51,528 nucleotides of DNA from positions 1-51,528 of the forward strand of contig CASFZN010000010.1 in NCBI GenBank assembly GCA_949299195.1, given 5' to 3'. Below are positions 10,494-43,774 of the stretch, piece after piece (position 1 is the stretch's first letter; every line of letters begins with the position of its first letter). The notes beneath the pieces were generated by a model. The model saw only the letters and a list, made by a program, of their open reading frames with translations. It did not search any database and was not told the origin of the DNA. The translations under genes were made by a program, and so were the position numbers. Source of the stretch: an uncultured bacterium (GTDB lineage: Bacteria > Bacillota_I > Bacilli_A > RFN20 > CAG-826).

Positions 10494-11830
10494 TTACCAA
10501 TCAATGTAATTTGTTTCATTAAAGAATCTTCTTAATAAGAAAGATAAAGAATAAGGGAAAGTAAAGATTTTACCATCAAAACCAATGTTATTTTGTGATA
10601 ACTTAACTCCATATTTTATATTTTCCTTCTCTAATACCTTATTTAACGATTTGGTTCTTCCATTTTTTACTTTAACTTCAATTGGAACTATTTCATTTTT
10701 AACTCTAATAACAAAATCTAATTCAATAGTTGCATCATTTGAAGCATAGAAAAACAAATCTTTATATCCTGATTTAATTAAAGCTTCGCTAACTACATTT
10801 TCAAATAAAACTCCGTTATAAATATTAAAGTTATTATTAACTAGATAGTCTTTTTTTTGTTTCTTCATCAAGTGAAGCTAAAAGTAATGATGTATCTTCA
10901 TAATAAACCCTAAAATTATTATTAATTTCATTTCCTTTTAAAGGCAAAGTTAAATCTTTTATGTTGTAGGCAACATTAATGACGCCAGCTTCTTTTACCA
11001 ACCTTCGCACCCTCGATATTCACGATATCTTGCTCTGTATGGTAATTTTTCTAAATTGGAACTTGTGATTTTCTTTAGCAAGTTGAGGGGTAATATGTAT
11101 AAAAAAATTTTAATTCTTGAAATATTCAACCCTACTACATATTTAGTAATATCTTCTTCATAATCTCGATATAGTTGTTCTTGTTTTTTAAATATATTTA
11201 TAAAATTTCCTTGTTTTATATAAGTGTTAACTTGATCTATCATGCCATCACAATAAATATATCCAGTTAATAAATCATTCAATTTAATTAAAATAGAGTT
11301 TGGAAGCGGTTTTAATTTCTTCGTAAAACTGAAAAAATATTCAATATCTTCATCTTTATAACCTTTTACCCATAGAAATTCTTCAAAATCTAAAGAATAC
11401 ATGATGTAATCAGTTTTAAATCCCACTGAAACACTTGTTATATTTTGATAATTAATACCAAGTAATGATCCTGAACAAATGACATCATAGTCTTCTTGCT
11501 CTTTAAAGAATTTTAAATATGTTAAAACTTTCGGAAAAGCTTGAACCTCATCAAAAAAGATTAGTGTTTTTTTAGGCACAAATTTGCAGTTTTTATTTAA
11601 AATAGAATTTCTCTTAAAATATTGTTAACGTTTTTGCTTTCGATAACTATCTTATATTTTGCACCAAAAATAAAATTAATTTCGACTAAATTTTTGTAAT
11701 TTTTCTTTCCCAAAATTTCTAATTGAAGTCGTTTTTTCCAATTTGCCTACTTTCTCTTATAATAAGAGGTAATTTTTCCTTACTTTCTTTCCAATCACAT
11801 AAAAATTTATCAATTTTTCCTTTTTAACAA
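10494..11830 (-). pseudogene. Frameshifted AAA_14/DUF4143 ATPase gene
   Basis: Three pieces of one gene in different frames. The 5' piece (about 11830-11600) reads FLCDWKESKEKLPLIIRESRQIGK, the family N-terminus up to a damaged P-loop (normally G-x-R-Q-V-G-K-T). The middle piece (11579-10995) carries Walker B TLIFFDEVQ, CSGSLLGI and the linker. After a frameshift near 11000 the sequence continues as RLVKEAGVINVAYN and then FRVYYEDTSLLLASL, and a third piece (10871-10494) carries LFENVVSEALIKSGY and VEIKVKNGRTKSL, the DUF4143 nuclease-like end. I see no intact start. Recent decay is likely, because each piece is still well conserved. Confidence 0.8.
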
Positions 11831-17764: not shown

Positions 17765-17800
17765 AATCGCAAAAAAAGTGGGAATATTAGAAAATTGCGA
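17765..17800. repeat. 36-bp direct repeat, copy 2, at the transcription start
   Basis: Exact second copy of 17621-17656, placed 2 bases after the -10 box and ending 12 bases before the ATG at 17813. This is an operator-like position. Confidence 0.9.
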
Positions 17801-17812
17801 CAGATTAATAAT

Positions 17813-19066
17813 ATGATAAAGAGAGATTTTTATTTACAACAATTAATATCTAAAAGACATTCATCAAAAGTGAAAATTATTACTGGATTAAGAAGATCTG
17901 GCAAGTCTTATCTGCTTTCTAAAATCTATAAGCAATATTTATTAGAACAAGGAGTAAATGAAGAGCAAATAATCATAGTTGAACTTGATGATGAAGCAAA
18001 TGATAAATTATTAAGAAAGGGAAATTTAAGGGAATATATTGAAAAAATAGCTCCCGATAATGATAAACAATACTACATTTTTATCGACGAAATCCAATTA
18101 GCAGAAGATTTTGTTAGAGCCGTTAACTCCTTAAATAAACATGACAATTACGACATTTATATCACCGGAAGCAATTCAAAATTTTTATCAAAAGATATTA
18201 ATGACGAGTTTAAAGATAGAGGAAGCGAAATTAATGTAAGGCCATTATCTTTTTCTGAATTTTATGAAGCCTACCCAAAGGATAAAAAATATGCATTAAG
18301 TGAATATTTGCGATACGGAGGGATGCCTGGATTATTTGAAGAAGAAACAGATTTAGCAAAAGAAAGATACCTAGATAACTTAATGAACAAGGTTTATATC
18401 GATGACATCAGAAAAAATATTAACACCACTTTAGTTGATGAATTATCAGCTACAGTAGATGCTTTATGTTCAGTAACCGGAAGCTTAACAAATCCACTGA
18501 ATATGACAAATTATCTTAATTCAAACAGAAATATTAAAATAAACCATGAAACAATAAGCAAATTTTTTGAAGGAATTACCGACGCTTTCTTATTCGACAA
18601 AGTTAAAAGATATGACATTAAAAGAAAACAATATCTTAACACGCCAATGAAATTTTATTGCCAAGATATCGGCCTAAGAAACGTTCGCATCAATTTCCGT
18701 GAACCAAATCAGGGTTTTTTAATTGAAAATACTGTTTATAACGAATTAATTACAAGAGGCTATAGAGTTGATGTTGGATTATTAACTTTTCAAAAGAAAA
18801 ATAAAGATTGGAAATACGTTAATACTCAAAATGAAGTTGATTTTATTGCAAGAATGAGTAGCAAAGAATATTACATTCAAATAATGAACGATATTCCTTC
18901 TGAAAAACATCTAAATAACGAATACGAATCTTTACTTAAGGTACCTGGTTCATTTAAGAAAATAATGGTGATTAATAGACCAACCATGTATTTTACAAAT
19001 GATATGGGAATTTTAGTTATTTCGTTAGAGGATTTCTTACTTAAAAAAGATAGTTTAGATTTATAA
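17813..19066 (+). CDS. AAA_14 / DUF4143 family ATP-binding protein (group with GLRRSGKS P-loop)
   Basis: Predicted cytoplasmic ATPase of the COG1373 type: an AAA_14 domain followed by DUF4143. The P-loop IITGLRRSGKSYLLSKI is near residue 23, Walker B YYIFIDEIQ near 89, and the sensor-like TGSNSKFLS near 121. DUF4143 runs from about 200, with FLIENTVYNELITRGYRVDVG near 305 and NEVDFIAR near 345, a reduced PD-(D/E)xK-like motif without its Lys. Molecular function of the family is not established. I start it at the ATG 17813 because the frame upstream lies inside the 36-bp repeat. There is no clear Shine-Dalgarno. It stands alone between tRNA-Leu and a second DUF4143 gene. Confidence 0.85.
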   Translation: MIKRDFYLQQLISKRHSSKVKIITGLRRSGKSYLLSKIYKQYLLEQGVNEEQIIIVELDDEANDKLLRKGNLREYIEKIAPDNDKQYYIFIDEIQLAEDFVRAVNSLNKHDNYDIYITGSNSKFLSKDINDEFKDRGSEINVRPLSFSEFYEAYPKDKKYALSEYLRYGGMPGLFEEETDLAKERYLDNLMNKVYIDDIRKNINTTLVDELSATVDALCSVTGSLTNPLNMTNYLNSNRNIKINHETISKFFEGITDAFLFDKVKRYDIKRKQYLNTPMKFYCQDIGLRNVRINFREPNQGFLIENTVYNELITRGYRVDVGLLTFQKKNKDWKYVNTQNEVDFIARMSSKEYYIQIMNDIPSEKHLNNEYESLLKVPGSFKKIMVINRPTMYFTNDMGILVISLEDFLLKKDSLDL

Positions 19067-19073
19067 TCAAAAT

Positions 19074-19165
19074 GCCAAATACCTCAAATTTTTTAAGCCA
19101 AATACTTCAAAAAAATTAAGCCAAATACCTCAAAAAAATGATGACATTTACCTCAATTTAGTATA
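19074..19165 (+). repeat. Four tandem 23-bp iterons upstream of ATPase gene
   Basis: Units start at 19074, 19097, 19120 and 19143, an exact 23-base period. The first three begin GCCAAATACCTCAAA or GCCAAATACTTCAAA; the fourth is diverged (GACATTTACCTCAATTT). The array ends at the promoter of the gene at 19203. An array of the same period but a different core precedes the paralogue at 40967-42229. Confidence 0.9.
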
Positions 19166-19202
19166 TTATATATAAAAATAAATCGATAAATTAGGTATTT
19201 TT

Positions 19203-20456
19203 ATGTATAAAAAAAGATTATTAGAAAAAACGTTAAATCAATATTTAAAAACTTTTAAAGCTATTTCTATTGTTGGTCCTAAGTTCTGCGGGAAAACAAC
19301 CCTTGCAGAGCAGTTTTCTAAATCGGCAATTTATTTAGATCCTTTAAATAAATCTGACTATAAAACAATGCTTCAATTAAATAAAAAGGAATTTTTATCA
19401 CCTCCTTATCCAAAATTAATCGATGAATGGCAACTCATTCCTGAAGTTTGGGACCAAATTAGACACGAAGTTGATCATATTGAAGATAGGGGCCTATTTC
19501 TTTTGACTGGTTCTTCAGCTGCGAATTTAGAAAAAACTGAACATTCTGGAGCTGGAAGGATCGCACGATTAATGTTAAGACCAATGAGTCTATATGAAAG
19601 CGGAGTTTCAAATGGAGAAATATCCTTATCTAAATTATTCGAAGGCGAAAAAATTGAATATACAAAAAGTCCATCAAAAGTTGAAGATTACGCAATAAAC
19701 ATTATTAAAGGTGGATGGCCAGAAAGTATTTATGACAGCGAACTACAAGCGAATAACAGAATGCGCTCATATATAGACGCTCTATTAAAAGAAGATATCA
19801 ATAAAGTAACATCCAAAAAATACAACGAAAATAAAGCTAGAAAAATTTTAGAATCTTTAGCAAGAGCTACCGGAAGTGAAGCTAGTAACAAAAAAATACT
19901 CAATGATTTAAGTTATTTTGACACTTCGATTTCTGAAAACACTTTAATTGATTATCTTGATGTTTTAAACAAACTTTACATTATAGAGGATTTAAAATCT
20001 TGGAATCCAAATTTAAGAAGCAAAACAATAATTAGAAGTACCCCAGCGAGATTTTTTGTTGACCCTTCAATAGGAGCATCTGTTTTAAATTTATCCAGTT
20101 CTAAATTGATGAAAGATTTTGAAACTTTTGGATTATTTTTTGAATCTTTAGTTATTAGAGATTTAAGAATATATGCAGAAAGTATAAACGGCGAAATATT
20201 CCGCTATAAAGACAAAACTGGTTTAGAAATTGATGCTATCGTACAGTTATATGATGGAAGATGGGGAGCAATCGAAATTAAAATGGGTTCACATTTATTT
20301 GATGAAGCTGCCAAAAAACTACAATCATTCGCTTCAAAAATAGACACTAAAAAAATGAGTGAGCCATCATTTTTAGGGATTATTTCAGCAACTGAATACG
20401 GATATCAAAGAGAAGACGGCGTTTATGTCATTCCTTTAGGGTTATTAAAAGACTAA
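19203..20456 (+). CDS. AAA / DUF4143 family ATP-binding protein (GPKFCGKTT P-loop)
   Basis: 417 aa. P-loop VGPKFCGKTTLAEQF near residue 25, Walker B PKLIDEWQLIPEVWD near 75, LTGSSAANL near 103, HSGAGRIARL near 118. The C-terminal DUF4143 has FESLVIRDLRIYAE near 310 and LEIDAIVQ followed by GAIEIKMG near 345, the D-x(n)-E-x-K arrangement of PD-(D/E)xK nucleases. It is clearly paralogous along its length to the protein at 40967-42229 (HSGAGR, LRSKT, FVDP, DGVYVIPLG against DGIYVVPIT). Biological role unknown; the tandem iterons immediately upstream suggest tight, probably self-directed, control. There is no strong Shine-Dalgarno, only TTAGGT about 8 bases before the ATG. Confidence 0.85.
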   Translation: MYKKRLLEKTLNQYLKTFKAISIVGPKFCGKTTLAEQFSKSAIYLDPLNKSDYKTMLQLNKKEFLSPPYPKLIDEWQLIPEVWDQIRHEVDHIEDRGLFLLTGSSAANLEKTEHSGAGRIARLMLRPMSLYESGVSNGEISLSKLFEGEKIEYTKSPSKVEDYAINIIKGGWPESIYDSELQANNRMRSYIDALLKEDINKVTSKKYNENKARKILESLARATGSEASNKKILNDLSYFDTSISENTLIDYLDVLNKLYIIEDLKSWNPNLRSKTIIRSTPARFFVDPSIGASVLNLSSSKLMKDFETFGLFFESLVIRDLRIYAESINGEIFRYKDKTGLEIDAIVQLYDGRWGAIEIKMGSHLFDEAAKKLQSFASKIDTKKMSEPSFLGIISATEYGYQREDGVYVIPLGLLKD

Positions 20457-37655: not shown

Positions 37656-38066
37656 ATGAAGAAACAAATTACAGTAAGCGGAGCAATAATCATTAAAAAT
37701 GGCTTAATATTATGTGCTCAAAGAAACGTAAATAAACACGATTACATCTCTTATAAATTTGAATTTCCTGGCGGAAAAATTGAAGAACACGAAACACCAA
37801 AAGAAGCTTTGCATAGAGAATTAATCGAAGAAATGAATGTTGATATAAATATCAACGATATGACTGATTTTATTGTTGTTAACCATGAATATCCTGATTT
37901 TAATTTAACAATGCATACATTTTTATGCCCTATAAAATCTGATGAAACTTTAACTTTAAAAGAACACGTTTCAATGAAACGGTCAAAAGTTGAGGATCTA
38001 GATAAAATCGATTGGGCTGGAGCCGACATTCCTGTTGCCAAAGCTTTAAAAGAAAGAGGAATTTAA
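37656..38066 (+). CDS. Nudix (deoxy)nucleoside triphosphate pyrophosphohydrolase, MutT-like
   Basis: 136 aa. Nudix box FEFPGGKIEEHETPKEAL continuing HRELIEEM at residues 35-60 (G-x5-E-x7-R-E-x2-E-E). The C-terminus ends DLDKIDWAGADIPVAKAL. In relatives that end is preceded by a Trp (kW-x3-eLd-x-LDWA-x-ADipi); here the position is CGG (37980-37982, residue 109), supporting CGG=Trp. Related proteins hydrolyse damaged or modified dNTPs. Its stop is 1 base before the helicase gene's ATG, so the two form one operon, an arrangement I know from other bacteria and often close to defence genes. Confidence 0.88.
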   Translation: MKKQITVSGAIIIKNGLILCAQRNVNKHDYISYKFEFPGGKIEEHETPKEALHRELIEEMNVDININDMTDFIVVNHEYPDFNLTMHTFLCPIKSDETLTLKEHVSMKRSKVEDLDKIDWAGADIPVAKALKERGI

Positions 38067-38067
38067 A

Positions 38068-40965
38068 ATGAGCAACCAAGATTTTAAGGATGGTTTAATA
38101 AAAGGTTTTATTGATAGAAATCAGGAATATGTTGGGGATTTTTTACCTGAACTAATTGTTAATAACCCTGAAAAAAACGAAAAAACTATATCTTTTTTAA
38201 CTAAATCCTTAGAATCTTGCGATGAATTCTATTTATCCGTAGCTTTTTTAACAAAAGGCGGATTAACTTGTATTACCGAAGCATTAGATAAAGCAAAGAA
38301 TAAAAAAGGTAAAATTCTATGCTCTAAATACCAAGATTTTACTGAACCAAACGCACTTTGGACTCTTTTGAAATACGATAATATTGATCTTAAAATTGAA
38401 ACCGAGAAAAACCATCATTCTAAAGGTTATATTTTTAAAAAAGGTGATGATTACACAATAATGGTAGAATCATCCAATCTTACACAAAACGCTCTAACCG
38501 TAAATAAAGAACGGAATCTTAAAATTTGTTCAAAGGAAAATGGAAAAATTTCTGATGATATAATCAAACAATTTAATGAAGACTTTGAAAATGCTTCTTC
38601 GGTCAACGAAATATTTATAAAAGAATACGAAGAGGATTATAAAAATAAAGAAAAAGCTAAGCGTGAAGTTAATAAAGCTTTAAAAAGAGATCAACAAGAA
38701 AAACCAAAAATAGAACCTAACAATATGCAGGTTCAAGCATTAGAAGGATTAGAAGCTACAAGAAATCAAGGGAAAACAAAAGGTCTTATCATTTCTTCTA
38801 CTGCTACTGGTAAAACTTATCTAGCAGCCTTTGATGTTAAAGAATTCCAGCCAAAAAGATTCCTTTATGTTGTCCACAACAATACAGTCTTAACAAAAGC
38901 AGAGCAAAGTTTTAGAGATGTTTTAGGAAATAATATCGTTACAGGCTTTATAAACGGCGAAAGAAAAAATTACGATGCAAAATATATTTTTGCATCAAAA
39001 CAAACTTTAACTAAAGATGAAGTTTTAAATCATTTTAAACCTGATGATTTTGACTATATTTTAATTGATGAAGCTCATCATTTAGCTACTGAGAATTACT
39101 TAAAAATTACTGATTACTTTAAACCTAAATTTCTTCTTGGTATGACCGCTACTCCAGAAAGAATGGATAACTTCAACATTTTACGAGTTTTCGATTTTAA
39201 TATTGTCTATGAAAATAGACTTTCGGATGCACTTAGAAAAAATTATCTAGTACCATTCCATTATCATGGAATTTCCGATATTTTTGTTGATAACCAACTT
39301 ATTGATTACGACAAATTTAATTACTTAACTTCCGATGAAAGAGTAAGGCATTTAATTTCAAAATCTGAATTTTTCTCATTCCAAGATCAAAGAATAAAAT
39401 GTTTAGTATTTGTTAATAAAATTGAAGTTGGGAAAATACTTGCAGAAAAATTCCGAGAAGCTGGCAAAAAAGCGGTCTTTGCAAGCGGAGAAACATCCAT
39501 TAAAGAAAGAGAAGAAATTATAAAACAACTTCAAAATGATGATTTAACAAAACCTTATTTAGAGTATGTTTTTACTGTTGATATTTTCAATGAAGGTGTT
39601 GATATTCCTCAAGTTAATCAAATCATGATGTGCCGCCCAACTGAGTCACCTATTGTATTTACTCAACAATTAGGAAGAGGCTTAAGAAAGGCGCCTAATA
39701 AGGATTATGTTGAAATTATCGATTTTATTGCTAATTACGACAAAAACTACCTCATACCAATCGCTTTATTCGGAGATAAATCATATAACAAAGATAATAT
39801 AAGAAGAAAACTTTATTCTAGAAACGATGAAGTTCCAGGAGCTTCAACAATAGCTTTTGATGATATTTCTGAAAACATTATCTTTAATAAGCTAAATTCA
39901 GCAAATTTATCAATTTTAGAATACCTAAAAGAATCATATAACCAAAGAAAAAATCAATTAGGAAGAATTCCGTTAATGTCAGATTTTATCGATGAATCTG
40001 CCGATTTTAGAGATCCTTTAGATTTCTGTTTATATCAAAGCGGTAGCTATTATAAGTTTTTAAAAAGAATAGATCATGAATCTATAAAAAGCGAAAACTT
40101 AACACCTAAAGAAATTAAAATTTTAGATCATCTCACATTGCATGCTTTTAGAGGTATTAAACTTGTATCATCCTATGTATTAATTTCATTATTAAAACGT
40201 GAAGCAAAATATAAAGACGTCTATGACGAGATTTTAAGAGATCTTAACATAAAAATAACAAAAGAAGATTTCATAAACTGTATAAGAATTTTGAATGGTG
40301 AATTTGACCAACTTAAAGAACCTATTTTAAATATCATTGTTTCTGAAGATGCTGAAACAGCAAAATTATCAGACGATGACAAAGAAATTTTAAATAAAGA
40401 TCCTTTATTTAAATATGTTTTAGATTTAATCAACTACAATACTTTAAAATTTAGAAAAGATTATAGTAATGGCGAACAATATAGAGATGGATTTATCCTA
40501 TACAAAAAATATTCAAAGGATGATATTAGTCAAATTTTTAATTACCCAATTACATACAAAAGTAGCATGTATGGCTATGTTTTTCCAAAAGAATCGAACA
40601 ATATTCCAATTTTAGTTACCTATCATAAAGACGCCTCTGATCCTGAAACTATTCTTTATGATGATAATTTTGTTAATACGTCCCTCTTCTCATGGACAAG
40701 TAAAACCAAAAGAACTCTAGAAAGTAAGGATGCTATTAGAATCAAAAACTATAAGGAATTAAACTTAAGATTCTGGTTGTTCGTTAAAAAGAGCGATGAT
40801 GAAGGAGAACCATATTTTTTAGGAGAAATTATTCCTGATGTAAGTTCAATGAAAGAAACTATCGTTAAGAATGAAAAAGCTTTTACTATACTTTTTAAAA
40901 TTGTCGATCCAGTTGAAGAAAAACTATATAAATATCTAATTAGCGAAGTCAAAAAGGTTGATTGA
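38068..40965 (+). CDS. PLD-nuclease / DEAD-like helicase / DUF3427 protein
   Basis: 965 aa. Residues 40-190 form a phospholipase D-type domain with HHSKGYIF near 116 and the following ESSNLTQNAL. A superfamily 2 helicase follows, with motif I SSTATGKTYLAAF near 242, motif II IDEAHH near 334, GMTATPERMD near 360, and C-terminal helicase motifs VDIFNEGVDIPQVNQ and QQLGRGLRK (motif VI) near 530. The last 350 residues match DUF3427. The class is thought to cut or remodel DNA and is often found in phage-defence neighbourhoods. The sequence VNKERNLKI at 145-153 is normally ...EWN[LV]K; here Trp is CGG (38512-38514). It ends in TGA, the only other clear TGA stop besides the LarA-like gene. Confidence 0.88.
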   Translation: MSNQDFKDGLIKGFIDRNQEYVGDFLPELIVNNPEKNEKTISFLTKSLESCDEFYLSVAFLTKGGLTCITEALDKAKNKKGKILCSKYQDFTEPNALWTLLKYDNIDLKIETEKNHHSKGYIFKKGDDYTIMVESSNLTQNALTVNKERNLKICSKENGKISDDIIKQFNEDFENASSVNEIFIKEYEEDYKNKEKAKREVNKALKRDQQEKPKIEPNNMQVQALEGLEATRNQGKTKGLIISSTATGKTYLAAFDVKEFQPKRFLYVVHNNTVLTKAEQSFRDVLGNNIVTGFINGERKNYDAKYIFASKQTLTKDEVLNHFKPDDFDYILIDEAHHLATENYLKITDYFKPKFLLGMTATPERMDNFNILRVFDFNIVYENRLSDALRKNYLVPFHYHGISDIFVDNQLIDYDKFNYLTSDERVRHLISKSEFFSFQDQRIKCLVFVNKIEVGKILAEKFREAGKKAVFASGETSIKEREEIIKQLQNDDLTKPYLEYVFTVDIFNEGVDIPQVNQIMMCRPTESPIVFTQQLGRGLRKAPNKDYVEIIDFIANYDKNYLIPIALFGDKSYNKDNIRRKLYSRNDEVPGASTIAFDDISENIIFNKLNSANLSILEYLKESYNQRKNQLGRIPLMSDFIDESADFRDPLDFCLYQSGSYYKFLKRIDHESIKSENLTPKEIKILDHLTLHAFRGIKLVSSYVLISLLKREAKYKDVYDEILRDLNIKITKEDFINCIRILNGEFDQLKEPILNIIVSEDAETAKLSDDDKEILNKDPLFKYVLDLINYNTLKFRKDYSNGEQYRDGFILYKKYSKDDISQIFNYPITYKSSMYGYVFPKESNNIPILVTYHKDASDPETILYDDNFVNTSLFSWTSKTKRTLESKDAIRIKNYKELNLRFWLFVKKSDDEGEPYFLGEIIPDVSSMKETIVKNEKAFTILFKIVDPVEEKLYKYLISEVKKVD

Positions 40966-40966
40966 G

Positions 40967-42229
40967 TTAATTTTTTAAACACGTAATTGGTACAACATAA
41001 ATCCCATCATTTCTACGATAAGCGAATTCTGTAGTTCCGGTAATTATCATCATAAAAGATGGTTTATTCATCGTATCGGTGTCAATTTTATAAAATAAAG
41101 TTTTTAAGTTTTTTGCTGCTTCTTCTATTTGTTCTTTTCCACCTAATTTAATTTCAACTAATGCGTATTTGCCTTGTTTCATGTGCAAAATAGCATCACA
41201 TTCAAGGTCATCTTTATCTCTATAAGTAAAAACACTTCCTTTTAATGATTCGGTATAAACTCTTAAATCTCTTATTACCATACTTTCAAATAATAAACCA
41301 AAAGTATTAAAGTCTTCTAATAAGTCGTTAGGTCCAATCATTAGAGCGCTAGTAGCAATGCATGGATCAACAAAGAGTCTTATTTTTGATGTTCTAATAG
41401 CTGTTTTACTTCTTAATTTAGGTGACCAGGCGCTCAATTCTTCTATTAAAAATATATTTCTAAAAGAATTTAATAAACTGCATATAGAAACACCGCTTAA
41501 AGACATGTTTTCATGCTTAATCATATCTTCTTTTATCGTATCTTTAGTTGCTCTTTGACTTTGAAACCTAGAATAACTTTTTAAAAAAGCCATAATCAAG
41601 CTTTCGTTTTTTACGGTTGAATCAATTCTCGAAATATCAGATTTTACTATTGCTTGTAAATATGAGGAATTATATTCAATTGCATCATCAATATTCATAT
41701 CTGTAGTTTCAGGAAATCCACCTCTACATATCAATTCAGCAAGGCGTTGTATTTTTGTATCGTTTTTACCAAAAATATCAATATTTTCATTATCAAATAA
41801 CTCTTTTAACGATACCTCTCCACTTGAATCCTCAGATTCAAATAAAGACATCGGTCTCATTAATAAGAAAGAAAATCTACCAGCTCCAGAATGAATAATT
41901 TCTTCTTCATTTATTGGAGTGGATGATCCAGTTAGAATAAATTGTCCTTTTAATCCTCTTTCGTCAACCTCATATCTAATAGCATCCCAAATTTTTGGGG
42001 TTAACTGCCATTCATCTATTAATCTAGGAGTTTCTCCATTTAAAAGAAAATCAATAACATTACGATTAATATCAACAAATTTTTCTTGGAATTGATAAAA
42101 AGACTTTGATAATTTTTTTGCAGTAGTAGTTTTGCCACATGCTTTTGGTCCTTCTATCAAAGTTGCACCAGTTATAATTAATGAGTTTTTAATTTGCTCT
42201 TCTATTATGCGTTTACGATACTTTTTCAT
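40967..42229 (-). CDS. AAA / DUF4143 family ATP-binding protein, iteron-controlled
   Basis: 420 aa, paralogue of 19203-20456 along its whole length. P-loop EGPKACGKTTTAKKL near residue 23, Walker B PRLIDEWQLTPKIWD near 70, ILTGSSTPIN near 98, HSGAGRFSFLLMRPMSLFE near 115. DUF4143 has FESMVIRDLRVYTE near 310 and DLECDAILHM followed by ALVEIKLGG near 345 (PD-(D/E)xK-like). Convergent with the helicase gene, ends overlapping by a base or two. The -10 box (TATATT) lies only about 7 bases before the ATG, so the mRNA is predicted to be leaderless, and there is no Shine-Dalgarno. Three 23-bp iterons precede the -35 box. Role unknown. Confidence 0.86.
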   Translation of the reverse strand: MKKYRKRIIEEQIKNSLIITGATLIEGPKACGKTTTAKKLSKSFYQFQEKFVDINRNVIDFLLNGETPRLIDEWQLTPKIWDAIRYEVDERGLKGQFILTGSSTPINEEEIIHSGAGRFSFLLMRPMSLFESEDSSGEVSLKELFDNENIDIFGKNDTKIQRLAELICRGGFPETTDMNIDDAIEYNSSYLQAIVKSDISRIDSTVKNESLIMAFLKSYSRFQSQRATKDTIKEDMIKHENMSLSGVSICSLLNSFRNIFLIEELSAWSPKLRSKTAIRTSKIRLFVDPCIATSALMIGPNDLLEDFNTFGLLFESMVIRDLRVYTESLKGSVFTYRDKDDLECDAILHMKQGKYALVEIKLGGKEQIEEAAKNLKTLFYKIDTDTMNKPSFMMIITGTTEFAYRRNDGIYVVPITCLKN

Positions 42230-42235
42230 AATTAA

Positions 42236-42264
42236 AATATATACGACAAAATTCGTATTTTCAA
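42236..42264 (-). promoter_or_regulatory. Sigma-A promoter of the iteron-controlled ATPase
   Basis: On the minus strand TTGAAA (42259-42264), 17-base spacer, TATATT (42236-42241). The expected start point coincides with the ATG at 42229, implying a leaderless transcript. The iterons end 7 bases before the -35 box. Confidence 0.7.
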
Positions 42265-42270
42265 TATTTA

Positions 42271-42339
42271 GTTAACGAGTTGGCGAAGTTTTAGTTAACA
42301 TTTTGGCGTTGTTTTACTTTACGAGTTGGCGAAATTTTA
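42271..42339 (-). repeat. Three tandem 23-bp iterons
   Basis: Units at 42271, 42294 and 42317, exact 23-base period. On the minus strand each has the core CGCCAACTCGT (unit 2: CGCCAAAATGT) followed by TAA and preceded by TAAAA. The GCCAA core and the period are shared with the array at 19074-19165, but the flanking bases differ. Confidence 0.9.
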
Positions 42340-42451
42340 AAACCTACTATTTAATCTAAAACTTTTGAATAGGAAATTGGGACTCAAAATTGCACTTTTA
42401 CAAACGAATTTTTGTTATTAAATAATACTTTTACAAACAAAATTTTGTATT

Positions 42452-42574
42452 TTATAGGGTATTATAATAGGATTTGATATCATCATTTTCTTGATTATTA
42501 CCATATTTTTTATAATCTCTTAGTAACTTTTTTACATATTTAGATTTATATTTTTTCTTGCTTCGATGTTTCAT
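42452..42574 (-). CDS. Small basic protein, 40 aa
   Basis: ATG at 42574, 3 bases after the stop of the AlbA_2 gene, with a GGAGG ribosome binding site inside that gene's last codons. The first half is strongly basic (MKHRSKKKYKSKYVKKLL), the second acidic and polar (NNQENDDIKSYYNTL), ending in TAA. Too short to assign to a family. Spacing and ribosome binding site argue that it is translated together with the upstream gene; a chance frame remains possible. Confidence 0.45.
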   Translation of the reverse strand: MKHRSKKKYKSKYVKKLLRDYKKYGNNQENDDIKSYYNTL

Positions 42575-42577
42575 AAC

Positions 42578-43774
42578 TTAAATTACCTCCCTCCAGCCAC
42601 CGGTTTTCTTACTTTCAACTCTTGCTAAATAGCCCTTATCTTTTAAGAATTTTATGTTTCTTTCAACCCAACTTTTAGATTTATTGGTTTTAAACATTAA
42701 CTCTTTAATTGTGACATCATTATTATTTCTAATTTCATCTAAAATCACTTTTTCTAAAGGTGATAAATTTTGATTTACATCACTCTTTTTAGAATTAAAT
42801 TGATTAAAAGGTATTGTAATAACTAAGTTATTAGCTATAGTTTTAAAAGAATTTATTCCATATTTATCATTTATTTTACTTAATAAAGAGATATTAGGAT
42901 CAATATAACCAAGTTCTACTAATATTAAATATAATTCCTTATTTAAGATATTAAATTCCCCATTAATTAAATCTTTAATAGATAAAGAATCTACATAACA
43001 AAAGTTAATACTATCGATATAATCAATTGTTCTATTTAATAAATAAAGAAGATTATTATGTTTAAACTCTTTATTAATGATTAATTGAGAAGTTTTACTT
43101 CTTCCTTTATATAAAGAAATGTCGATATAAATTTTAGGAGTATCCGATAATAATTCTCCTAAATAGTTATATTCTTTCTTTCCGGTTAATAGATTTAAAT
43201 CTTTTAAAAAAGTATTCTTATTAAGTTCAATATTATAAAAAGAATAAATATAGAATAACTTATTAAAAGTTAAGTCCTTTTGAGTACTTTTTTTAGTTAC
43301 TAAAGTCTCTTCCTTATTATTTAATAAACGATATAAATCATTTAACTTTTTAGGATAAAACTTGAGTTCAGTTTTGATTTTCCCTACCATTAGATATTTC
43401 TTGTTTTTAAAAGATGTAGGTATTTCTTTAGCGCTACTAATATATAGAATTACTACTCTTCGATTATTTTCTTCATAAAACATATCGAATCTAACATTTA
43501 TCTTAGGTTTTAAATATTTTTCGATAGTCTTTTTATAGGTTTTTGTTAAATATCTTTTTGAGGGATTAAAATCAGTTCCTACTGCTTTAAAAGTTAAAGG
43601 GTCTATTCCTAAAATTAAATAACCATATTCCTTCTTATTTAAAGCTGCACTATTAGAAAGAGCAGAAATCATCTCTCCTAATGAGAGTGAATCAATTCCT
43701 TTATAACAGATATAGACCCATTCCTTATCATGATCATAAAGAATTAAACTATTAATGATTTTGTTAATTGTCAT
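42578..43774 (-). CDS. AlbA_2 (Schlafen-like) domain protein with C-terminal winged helix
   Basis: 398 aa. The N-terminal 150 residues match the AlbA_2/AAA_4 domain: EMISALSNSAALNKKEYGYLILGIDP near residue 33, NVRFDMFYEENNRRVVILYISSAKEIPTSFKNKKYLMVGK near 95. The C-terminal 65 residues form a winged helix: LSPLEKVILDEIRNNNDVTIKELM and SKSWVERNIKFLKDKGYLARV. Proteins of this build are annotated as ATP-binding or putative transcription regulators, and Schlafen-like domains can cut RNA. Its promoter region is nearly the same as that of recA, so it may be co-induced with recA. A 40-codon gene follows closely. Confidence 0.82.
   Translation of the reverse strand: MTINKIINSLILYDHDKEWVYICYKGIDSLSLGEMISALSNSAALNKKEYGYLILGIDPLTFKAVGTDFNPSKRYLTKTYKKTIEKYLKPKINVRFDMFYEENNRRVVILYISSAKEIPTSFKNKKYLMVGKIKTELKFYPKKLNDLYRLLNNKEETLVTKKSTQKDLTFNKLFYIYSFYNIELNKNTFLKDLNLLTGKKEYNYLGELLSDTPKIYIDISLYKGRSKTSQLIINKEFKHNNLLYLLNRTIDYIDSINFCYVDSLSIKDLINGEFNILNKELYLILVELGYIDPNISLLSKINDKYGINSFKTIANNLVITIPFNQFNSKKSDVNQNLSPLEKVILDEIRNNNDVTIKELMFKTNKSKSWVERNIKFLKDKGYLARVESKKTGGWREVI

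What the first reader, a model, noticed from the sequence alone, without database searches (positions are those of the whole stretch)
42236..42339. A paralogous ATPase has its own 23-bp iterons and a probably leaderless promoter
The paralogue at 40967-42229 has three units with the same 23-base period and the same GCCAA core but otherwise different sequence (CGCCAACTCGT). They end 7 bases before a TTGAAA-N17-TATATT promoter whose start point falls on the ATG. Two paralogues sharing period, core and geometry but not full sequence suggest each protein and its iterons co-evolve: a private autoregulatory or self-recognition system for this ill-understood family.
Basis: partly seen in the sequence, partly recalled or inferred. 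Interest (0 to 1): 0.82.

Follow-up and report, generated by a model that had tools for sequence, protein, structure and literature searches.

The report
Self-reading repeat arrays of defence ATPases
A very common but untested bacterial phage-defence candidate, an ATPase fused to a nuclease-like domain, almost always has its own set of 23-base repeats at its promoter, and three amino acids of the protein predict the repeat's variable letters, so each protein apparently reads and controls its own switch.

Summary
Three 23-bp units (42267-42339) sit upstream of a TTGAAA-N17-TATATT promoter whose expected start falls on the ATG. The paralogue at 19203-20456 has its own, different 23-bp array.

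This is a family trait, not a local oddity. Of 212 unique AAA_14+DUF4143 homologues from several phyla, 204 carry a 23-bp array at the promoter; in a later held-out set it is 87 of 88. The -35 box keeps a fixed phase to the array.

The array's variable letters covary with residues 245-247, at the start of the winged-helix recognition helix. Trained only on proteins under 50% identical, those three residues predict held-out bases at 48%, against 28% for other residue triples. Residue 247 acts as a one-letter code: Asp/Glu with C, Lys with G, Pro with A, Asn with T. In the window's genome the units occur nowhere but in their own arrays.

The proteins match PADLOC's PDC-S01, a widespread unvalidated defence candidate. 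I found no report of these arrays in open papers. Direct self-binding is well supported; autorepression is likely but inferred; what the nuclease does is unknown.

The parts
40967..42229 (-). AAA_14 + winged helix + DUF4143 (PD-(D/E)XK-like) protein, 420 aa; PADLOC PDC-S01
   Evidence: Pfam; PADLOC PDLC04790 E 5e-57; AlphaFold2 mean pLDDT 90
42267..42339 (-). array of three 23-bp units (u0 at 42330, 42307, 42284)
   Evidence: TRF; direct repeats; unit positions; shuffles
42236..42264 (-). sigma70-type promoter TTGAAA-N17-TATATT; -35 begins at unit phase 20; 6 nt from the -10 to the ATG (probably leaderless)
42239..42261 (-). place of a fourth, degenerate unit that would cover most of the -35 and the spacer (inferred)
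   Evidence: register only; in many homologues a recognisable unit lies here
41435..41605 (-). codons of the winged helix (residues 209-265)
   Evidence: helices 209-221, 229-240, 249-258 and strand 262-265 in the model
41489..41497 (-). codons of residues 245-247 (S-G-V), the specificity positions
   Evidence: best-scoring residue window for covariation with the unit core
40988..41311 (-). codons of the PD-(D/E)XK-like domain (residues 307-414), with D345 and E359-x-K361
   Evidence: these residues in 203/203 homologues; strand order
19074..19156 (+). the paralogue's own 23-bp array (GCCAAATACCTCAAAAAAATTAA, 3.5 copies)
19141..19169 (+). paralogue promoter ATGACA-N17-TATTAT, overlapping the last unit; 33 nt leader
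19203..20456 (+). paralogous ATPase, 417 aa, 43% identical

Best explanation
The array is a private operator of the protein it precedes. Each unit is bound by one subunit of the ATPase; the first turn of its winged-helix recognition helix (residues 245-247) reads the variable bases u7-u11, next to the common GCCAAA core and an A-rich part. Bound subunits stack along the array in a fixed register that ends on the -35 box, so occupancy blocks RNA polymerase and the gene holds its own product low (autorepression). Because repeats and reader travel together and change together, several paralogues can share a cell, each with its own switch. Shown by computation: array, period, phase to the promoter, covariation and out-of-sample prediction, absence of other sites in three genomes searched, intact ATPase and nuclease-like motifs. 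Inferred: direct binding, one subunit per unit, stacking by the ATPase domain, repression rather than activation, and a link to phage defence.
For: 204/212 unique homologues have a 23-bp array above the 99% null of other periods; mean best lag-23 identity 0.83 against about 0.43 background; 87/88 in a held-out set. The -35 falls at unit phase 18-21 in 111 of 146. In 99 disjoint sister pairs, change in u6-u11 goes best with residue 247 (p=2.6e-6, first of 326 columns) and change in u7-8 with residue 246. Among pairs under 50% identical, a shared 245-247 triple adds 1.04 of 5 core matches, first of 379 windows, about 6 sd. Held-out prediction with training under 50% identical: 48% per base, against a mean of 28% (best 39%) for 60 control triples and 27% for the nearest neighbour. 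Cluster-weighted code at u10: D/E-C, K-G, P-A, N-T. The equivalents of 245-247 lie at the N-cap and first turn of the recognition helix. Units occur only in their own arrays in the window's genome. In 59 of 76 loci no ORF of 100 aa or more starts within 80 bp downstream on the same strand.
Against: No binding or expression data. Repression is inferred from position; where the array stops just upstream of the -35, activation would also fit. 8 of 203 unit phases change when the variable bases are left out of phasing, and some held-out misses look like phase errors. The -35 search can be drawn to the unit's own TTGCCA, which inflates the phase lock in part. 8 of 212 members show no significant array. 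Paralogue units are not unusually distinct.
Confidence: 0.78

Rival explanations
1. The protein binds its array but activates its own promoter (positive feedback), the array acting as upstream activator sites next to the -35.
For: In a large class the last recognisable unit lies just upstream of the -35 (u0 18-21 bp away).
Against: In another large class a unit overlaps the -35 and spacer, as expected for occlusion. Positive feedback on a nuclease-bearing ATPase looks costly (inference).
Confidence: 0.13
2. The array is mainly a docking or storage site: it holds the STAND-like ATPase-nuclease inactive or poised, and release or disassembly on phage attack frees it to act. Control of transcription is secondary.
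For: STAND/NB-ARC-like fold over residues 1-298 (2qen Z 15.7, RPP1 12.4, CED-4 11.9); intact PD-(D/E)XK residues in 203/203; PDC-S01 match and defence neighbours. Three to seven tandem sites are more than a simple operator needs.
Against: No direct evidence. Strict tie to the promoter and its phase points to transcription.
Confidence: 0.2
3. The array is the target of the protein's own nuclease and serves spread or retention of an array-plus-gene cassette.
For: In several divergent pairs shared DNA runs from about the first unit to the stop codon (L293/L294, L295/L296, L048/L113). In 3 of 70 loci a second array of the same unit lies downstream in direct orientation, in L097 within a 300-bp direct repeat flanking the gene. 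Patchy, multi-copy, often decayed genes.
Against: No unit sites away from the locus in three genomes. Most loci have one array. Intergenic divergence alone could set such boundaries (L291/L292 are syntenic).
Confidence: 0.12
4. Another regulator binds the arrays; their link to the ATPase is indirect.
For: None found.
Against: The variable bases track three residues in the ATPase's own recognition helix, also across distant homologues and in held-out data. The gene is found in other phyla with its array.
Confidence: 0.03

Closest known systems
PADLOC PDC-S01 (phage defence candidate S01; DUF4143 ATPases)
   Same: Same protein family: PDLC04790 matches both window proteins. Described as an ATPase fused to a PD-(D/E)XK superfamily domain, fourth most common defence across prokaryotes, validation pending (PMC12988326).
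   Different: I found no description of promoter arrays, winged-helix specificity or autoregulation for it.
Iteron plasmids with Rep initiators
   Same: Tandem direct repeats of about two helical turns bound by a winged-helix protein, often with control of the rep gene (general knowledge; review PMC4980987 located, not read).
   Different: No Rep domain, no replicon; an AAA/STAND ATPase with a nuclease-like domain; on chromosomes, in one to many copies, each with its own unit sequence.
RptR, repressor of an E. coli defence island (PMC12255303)
   Same: A defence locus repressed through three direct repeats in its promoter (abstract).
   Different: RptR is a small separate regulator with one conserved site. 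Here the effector-like protein appears to be its own regulator and the site differs from member to member.
Archaeal ATPases SSO1545 (2fna) and PABY2304 (2qen); STAND/NLR proteins
   Same: Nearest folds over residues 1-298.
   Different: No tandem-site binding is known to me for 2fna or 2qen; NLR winged helices are not known to me to read DNA in this way.
Orc1/Cdc6 initiators (2qby)
   Same: AAA+ plus winged helix that binds repeated origin sites (general knowledge); Foldseek match.
   Different: No nuclease-like domain there; no own-promoter arrays with member-specific sequence known to me.

Membership tests
PDC-S01 / AAA_14-DUF4143 | profile match over the whole protein | tested here: met
   PDLC04790 E 5e-57 and 2.3e-66; PF13173 and PF13635 above cut-off
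PDC-S01 / AAA_14-DUF4143 | anti-phage activity | not testable with these tools
   needs a phage assay; reported as unvalidated
P-loop ATPase (AAA/STAND) | Walker A and B residues | tested here: met
   K33 203/203, D72 203/203, E73 202/203
STAND NTPase | NBD-HD-WHD fold | tested here: met
   residues 1-298 align to 2qen Z 15.7, RPP1 12.4, CED-4 11.9
STAND NTPase | C-terminal sensor repeats and ligand-driven assembly | not tested
   residues 307-414 form the PD-(D/E)XK-like domain; assembly needs experiment
PD-(D/E)XK nuclease | catalytic D and E-x-K | tested here: met
   D345, E359, K361 in 203/203; alpha-beta-beta-beta-alpha-beta order in the model
PD-(D/E)XK nuclease | DNA cleavage | not testable with these tools
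   needs biochemistry
Iteron-autoregulated protein (what it works like) | tandem units in the protein's own promoter | tested here: met
   204/212 and 87/88
Iteron-autoregulated protein (what it works like) | specific binding by the encoded protein | tested here: inconclusive
   strong covariation and prediction, no binding assay
Iteron plasmid Rep | Rep initiator domain | tested here: not met
   Pfam finds AAA_14 and DUF4143 only

The most novel reading that the evidence does not exclude
A STAND-like ATPase with a nuclease-like domain uses its winged helix to assemble on a private, self-matched DNA array, so the array is at once operator, assembly platform and self-tag: it keeps the protein scarce and parked, and loss of the array complex during phage takeover releases it. 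Protein and array re-specify together by a simple residue-to-base code, and other DUF4143 branches do the same with a different period (32-33 bp).
Probability: 0.25. Interest if true: 0.94.

Novelty: new variant of a known kind. Interest (0 to 1): 0.87.

Why it matters
PDC-S01 is reported as the fourth most common defence across prokaryotes, with tens of thousands of copies, and its function is untested (PMC12988326). The arrays give a first mechanistic handle: a DNA partner, a predicted DNA-reading helix and a testable code. About 300 natural protein-operator pairs form a ready data set on how a winged helix and a multi-copy site change specificity together, an old puzzle because several repeats must change with one protein.

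Tried and rejected
Chance repeat: rejected by shuffles and by the family-wide survey. A regulon: no unit sites elsewhere in the window's genome or in two Bacteroidales genomes except a local solo array. Extra selection for distinct units among paralogues: not seen (41 pairs, difference 0.13 +/- 0.19 of 7). Clean mobile ends: shared blocks often run from array to stop codon, but one pair is syntenic and the intergenic DNA has simply diverged; target duplications not shown. Covariation of u0-u2 with many columns was discounted as clade signal. Phages and viral contigs: few members (4 phage records, 8 viral contigs); PHROGs gives nothing. No solved structure by sequence (best E 0.0095, P-loop only). 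Papers: DUF4143 occurs in one held paper; searches linking iterons, autoregulation and ATPases found nothing relevant; only open papers are covered.

Full report
What is there. The gene at 40967-42229 (minus strand) encodes a 420-residue protein with AAA_14 and DUF4143 domains. Upstream lie three tandem 23-bp units and a TTGAAA-N17-TATATT promoter that ends 6 nt before the ATG. The repeat is not chance: 34 of 46 matches at lag 23, against at most 30 in 1000 shuffles. The paralogue at 19203-20456 (43% identical) has its own array of the same period and core but other sequence.

Family survey. Homologues were collected from the same order, from genome contigs of Bacillota, Bacteroidota, Spirochaetes, Gardnerella and others, and from whole genomes. 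Among 212 unique members with upstream DNA, 204 have a 23-bp array scoring above the 99th percentile of the same score at six other periods. The mean best identity at lag 23 is 0.83, other lags about 0.43, with the expected echoes at 46 and 69. Plasmid homologues from Bacteroides, Collinsella and, at 28% identity, Prosthecochloris also have it. Eighty-eight further members fetched later, mostly from other families of the class, with a few from viral contigs and plasmids, served as a held-out set: 87 have the array. Other DUF4143 branches differ. In a sample of loci all 22 proteins of this branch have period 23 (20) or 24 (2); a second branch with a KR...W start and a G-x-RQ-x-GKT P-loop often has 32-33 bp; a third branch has none. 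That last division was made by eye and by motif and is a lead.

Unit and promoter. Aligned in a circle, the unit reads G-C-C-A-A-A-T-n-n-n-n-n-A-A-T-A-A-A-A-T-n-n-n; u6-u11 vary most, besides the ends. Where a good sigma70 promoter is found (146 members), the -35 falls at phase 18-21 of the unit in 111, against about 17% by chance. Part of this may come from the unit's own TTGCCA, which resembles a -35. Two classes are seen: the array ends at the -35, or one more unit overlaps it. The gap from -10 to ATG is 5-6 nt in 13 of 146 with a sharp peak at 6, so leaderless starts recur but are a minority.

Who reads the array. Protein columns were tested against unit positions in four ways. Mutual information with background correction puts residues 245-247 at the top for u7-u11; the many columns linked to u2 look like clade signal. 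In 99 disjoint sister pairs, with identity regressed out, change in u6-u11 goes best with residue 247 (p=2.6e-6) of 326 columns, and u7-8 with residue 246. Among 13,927 pairs under 50% identical, a shared 245-247 triple raises core matches from 1.36 to 2.4 of 5, first of 379 windows. On 78 held-out members, training only on proteins under 50% identical, 245-247 predict u9-u11 at 48% per base; 60 control triples average 28% (best 39%), the nearest neighbour 27%, the majority base 32%. Weighted by 60% and 55% clusters, residue 247 sets u10: D/E with C, K with G, P with A, N with T; five Arg cases mostly give A. Lys-guanine and acid-cytosine are chemically plausible contacts. The window protein has Val247 and T-T-A at u9-u11, within the pattern seen for Val.

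Structure. AlphaFold2 models of the window protein and of a homologue are confident (mean pLDDT 90 and 92). Residues 209-265 form a winged helix; in the homologue the equivalents of 245-247 are the N-cap and first turn of the recognition helix (250-262). In the window protein they lie just before the helix (249-258) at lower confidence. Residues 1-298 align with archaeal ATPases 2qen and 2fna and with NLR and apoptosome NB-ARC parts. Residues 307-414 have the strand order of PD-(D/E)XK enzymes; D345, E359 and K361 occur in all 203 aligned members, as do the Walker lysine and aspartate.

Privacy and mobility. With up to 3 mismatches, each unit occurs in the window's genome only in its own array. 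Forty-one within-genome paralogue pairs share no identical unit, but their units are no more different than those of matched pairs. Shared DNA between divergent homologues often runs from the array to the stop codon, and 3 of 70 loci carry a second array downstream, once as part of a 300-bp direct repeat around the gene. This hints at duplication or movement; it is not shown.

Reading. PADLOC calls both proteins PDC-S01; the literature describes that family as very common, ATPase plus PD-(D/E)XK, validation pending. In the window a type IV restriction enzyme and a PDC-S07 NUDIX gene lie next to it. The simplest account is that each protein binds its own array and represses its own promoter. 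Binding is well supported by covariation; repression rests on position; the purpose of the nuclease-like domain and any phage link are open. In the open papers searched I found no report of these arrays, which is weak evidence of novelty because subscription papers and preprints are not held.

Noticed in passing
L241, L271, L282, L256, L249, L276, L278, L281, L287 (upstream of the gene): A second DUF4143 branch (KR...W start, G-x-RQ-x-GKT P-loop) has promoter arrays of period 32-33 bp in about half or more of a small sample; a third branch has none.
   Followed up: partly
L083 4291-4379; L097 4286-4585; L115 5400-5452: Solo arrays of the same unit downstream of the gene, direct orientation, no obvious gene behind them; in L097 a 300-bp direct repeat flanks the gene.
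   Followed up: partly
window 10494-11700: A broken copy of a DUF4143 gene, apparently of the 32-33 bp branch, with several stops and frame shifts.
   Followed up: partly
window 17795-19066: A third DUF4143 ATPase of another branch sits directly upstream of the paralogue's array and has no array of its own.
   Followed up: no
window 37656-43774: Defence-like neighbourhood: PDC-S07 NUDIX, type IV restriction enzyme (mREase_IV, E 6e-197), the ATPase, and a Schlafen AlbA_2 plus HTH protein.
   Followed up: no
window 42241-42258: The spacer between -35 and -10 holds an imperfect palindrome ATACGAATTTTGTCGTAT; not tested in homologues.
   Followed up: no
G309, G334, G337 (class-level genomes): Homologues with 2-5 in-frame TGA codons, as expected in genomes that read TGA as tryptophan.
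   Followed up: no
L067/L068, L160/L162, L033/L181: Near-identical proteins differ in the number of units (3 and 4, 5 and 4, 4 and 3), so unit number changes fast.
   Followed up: no
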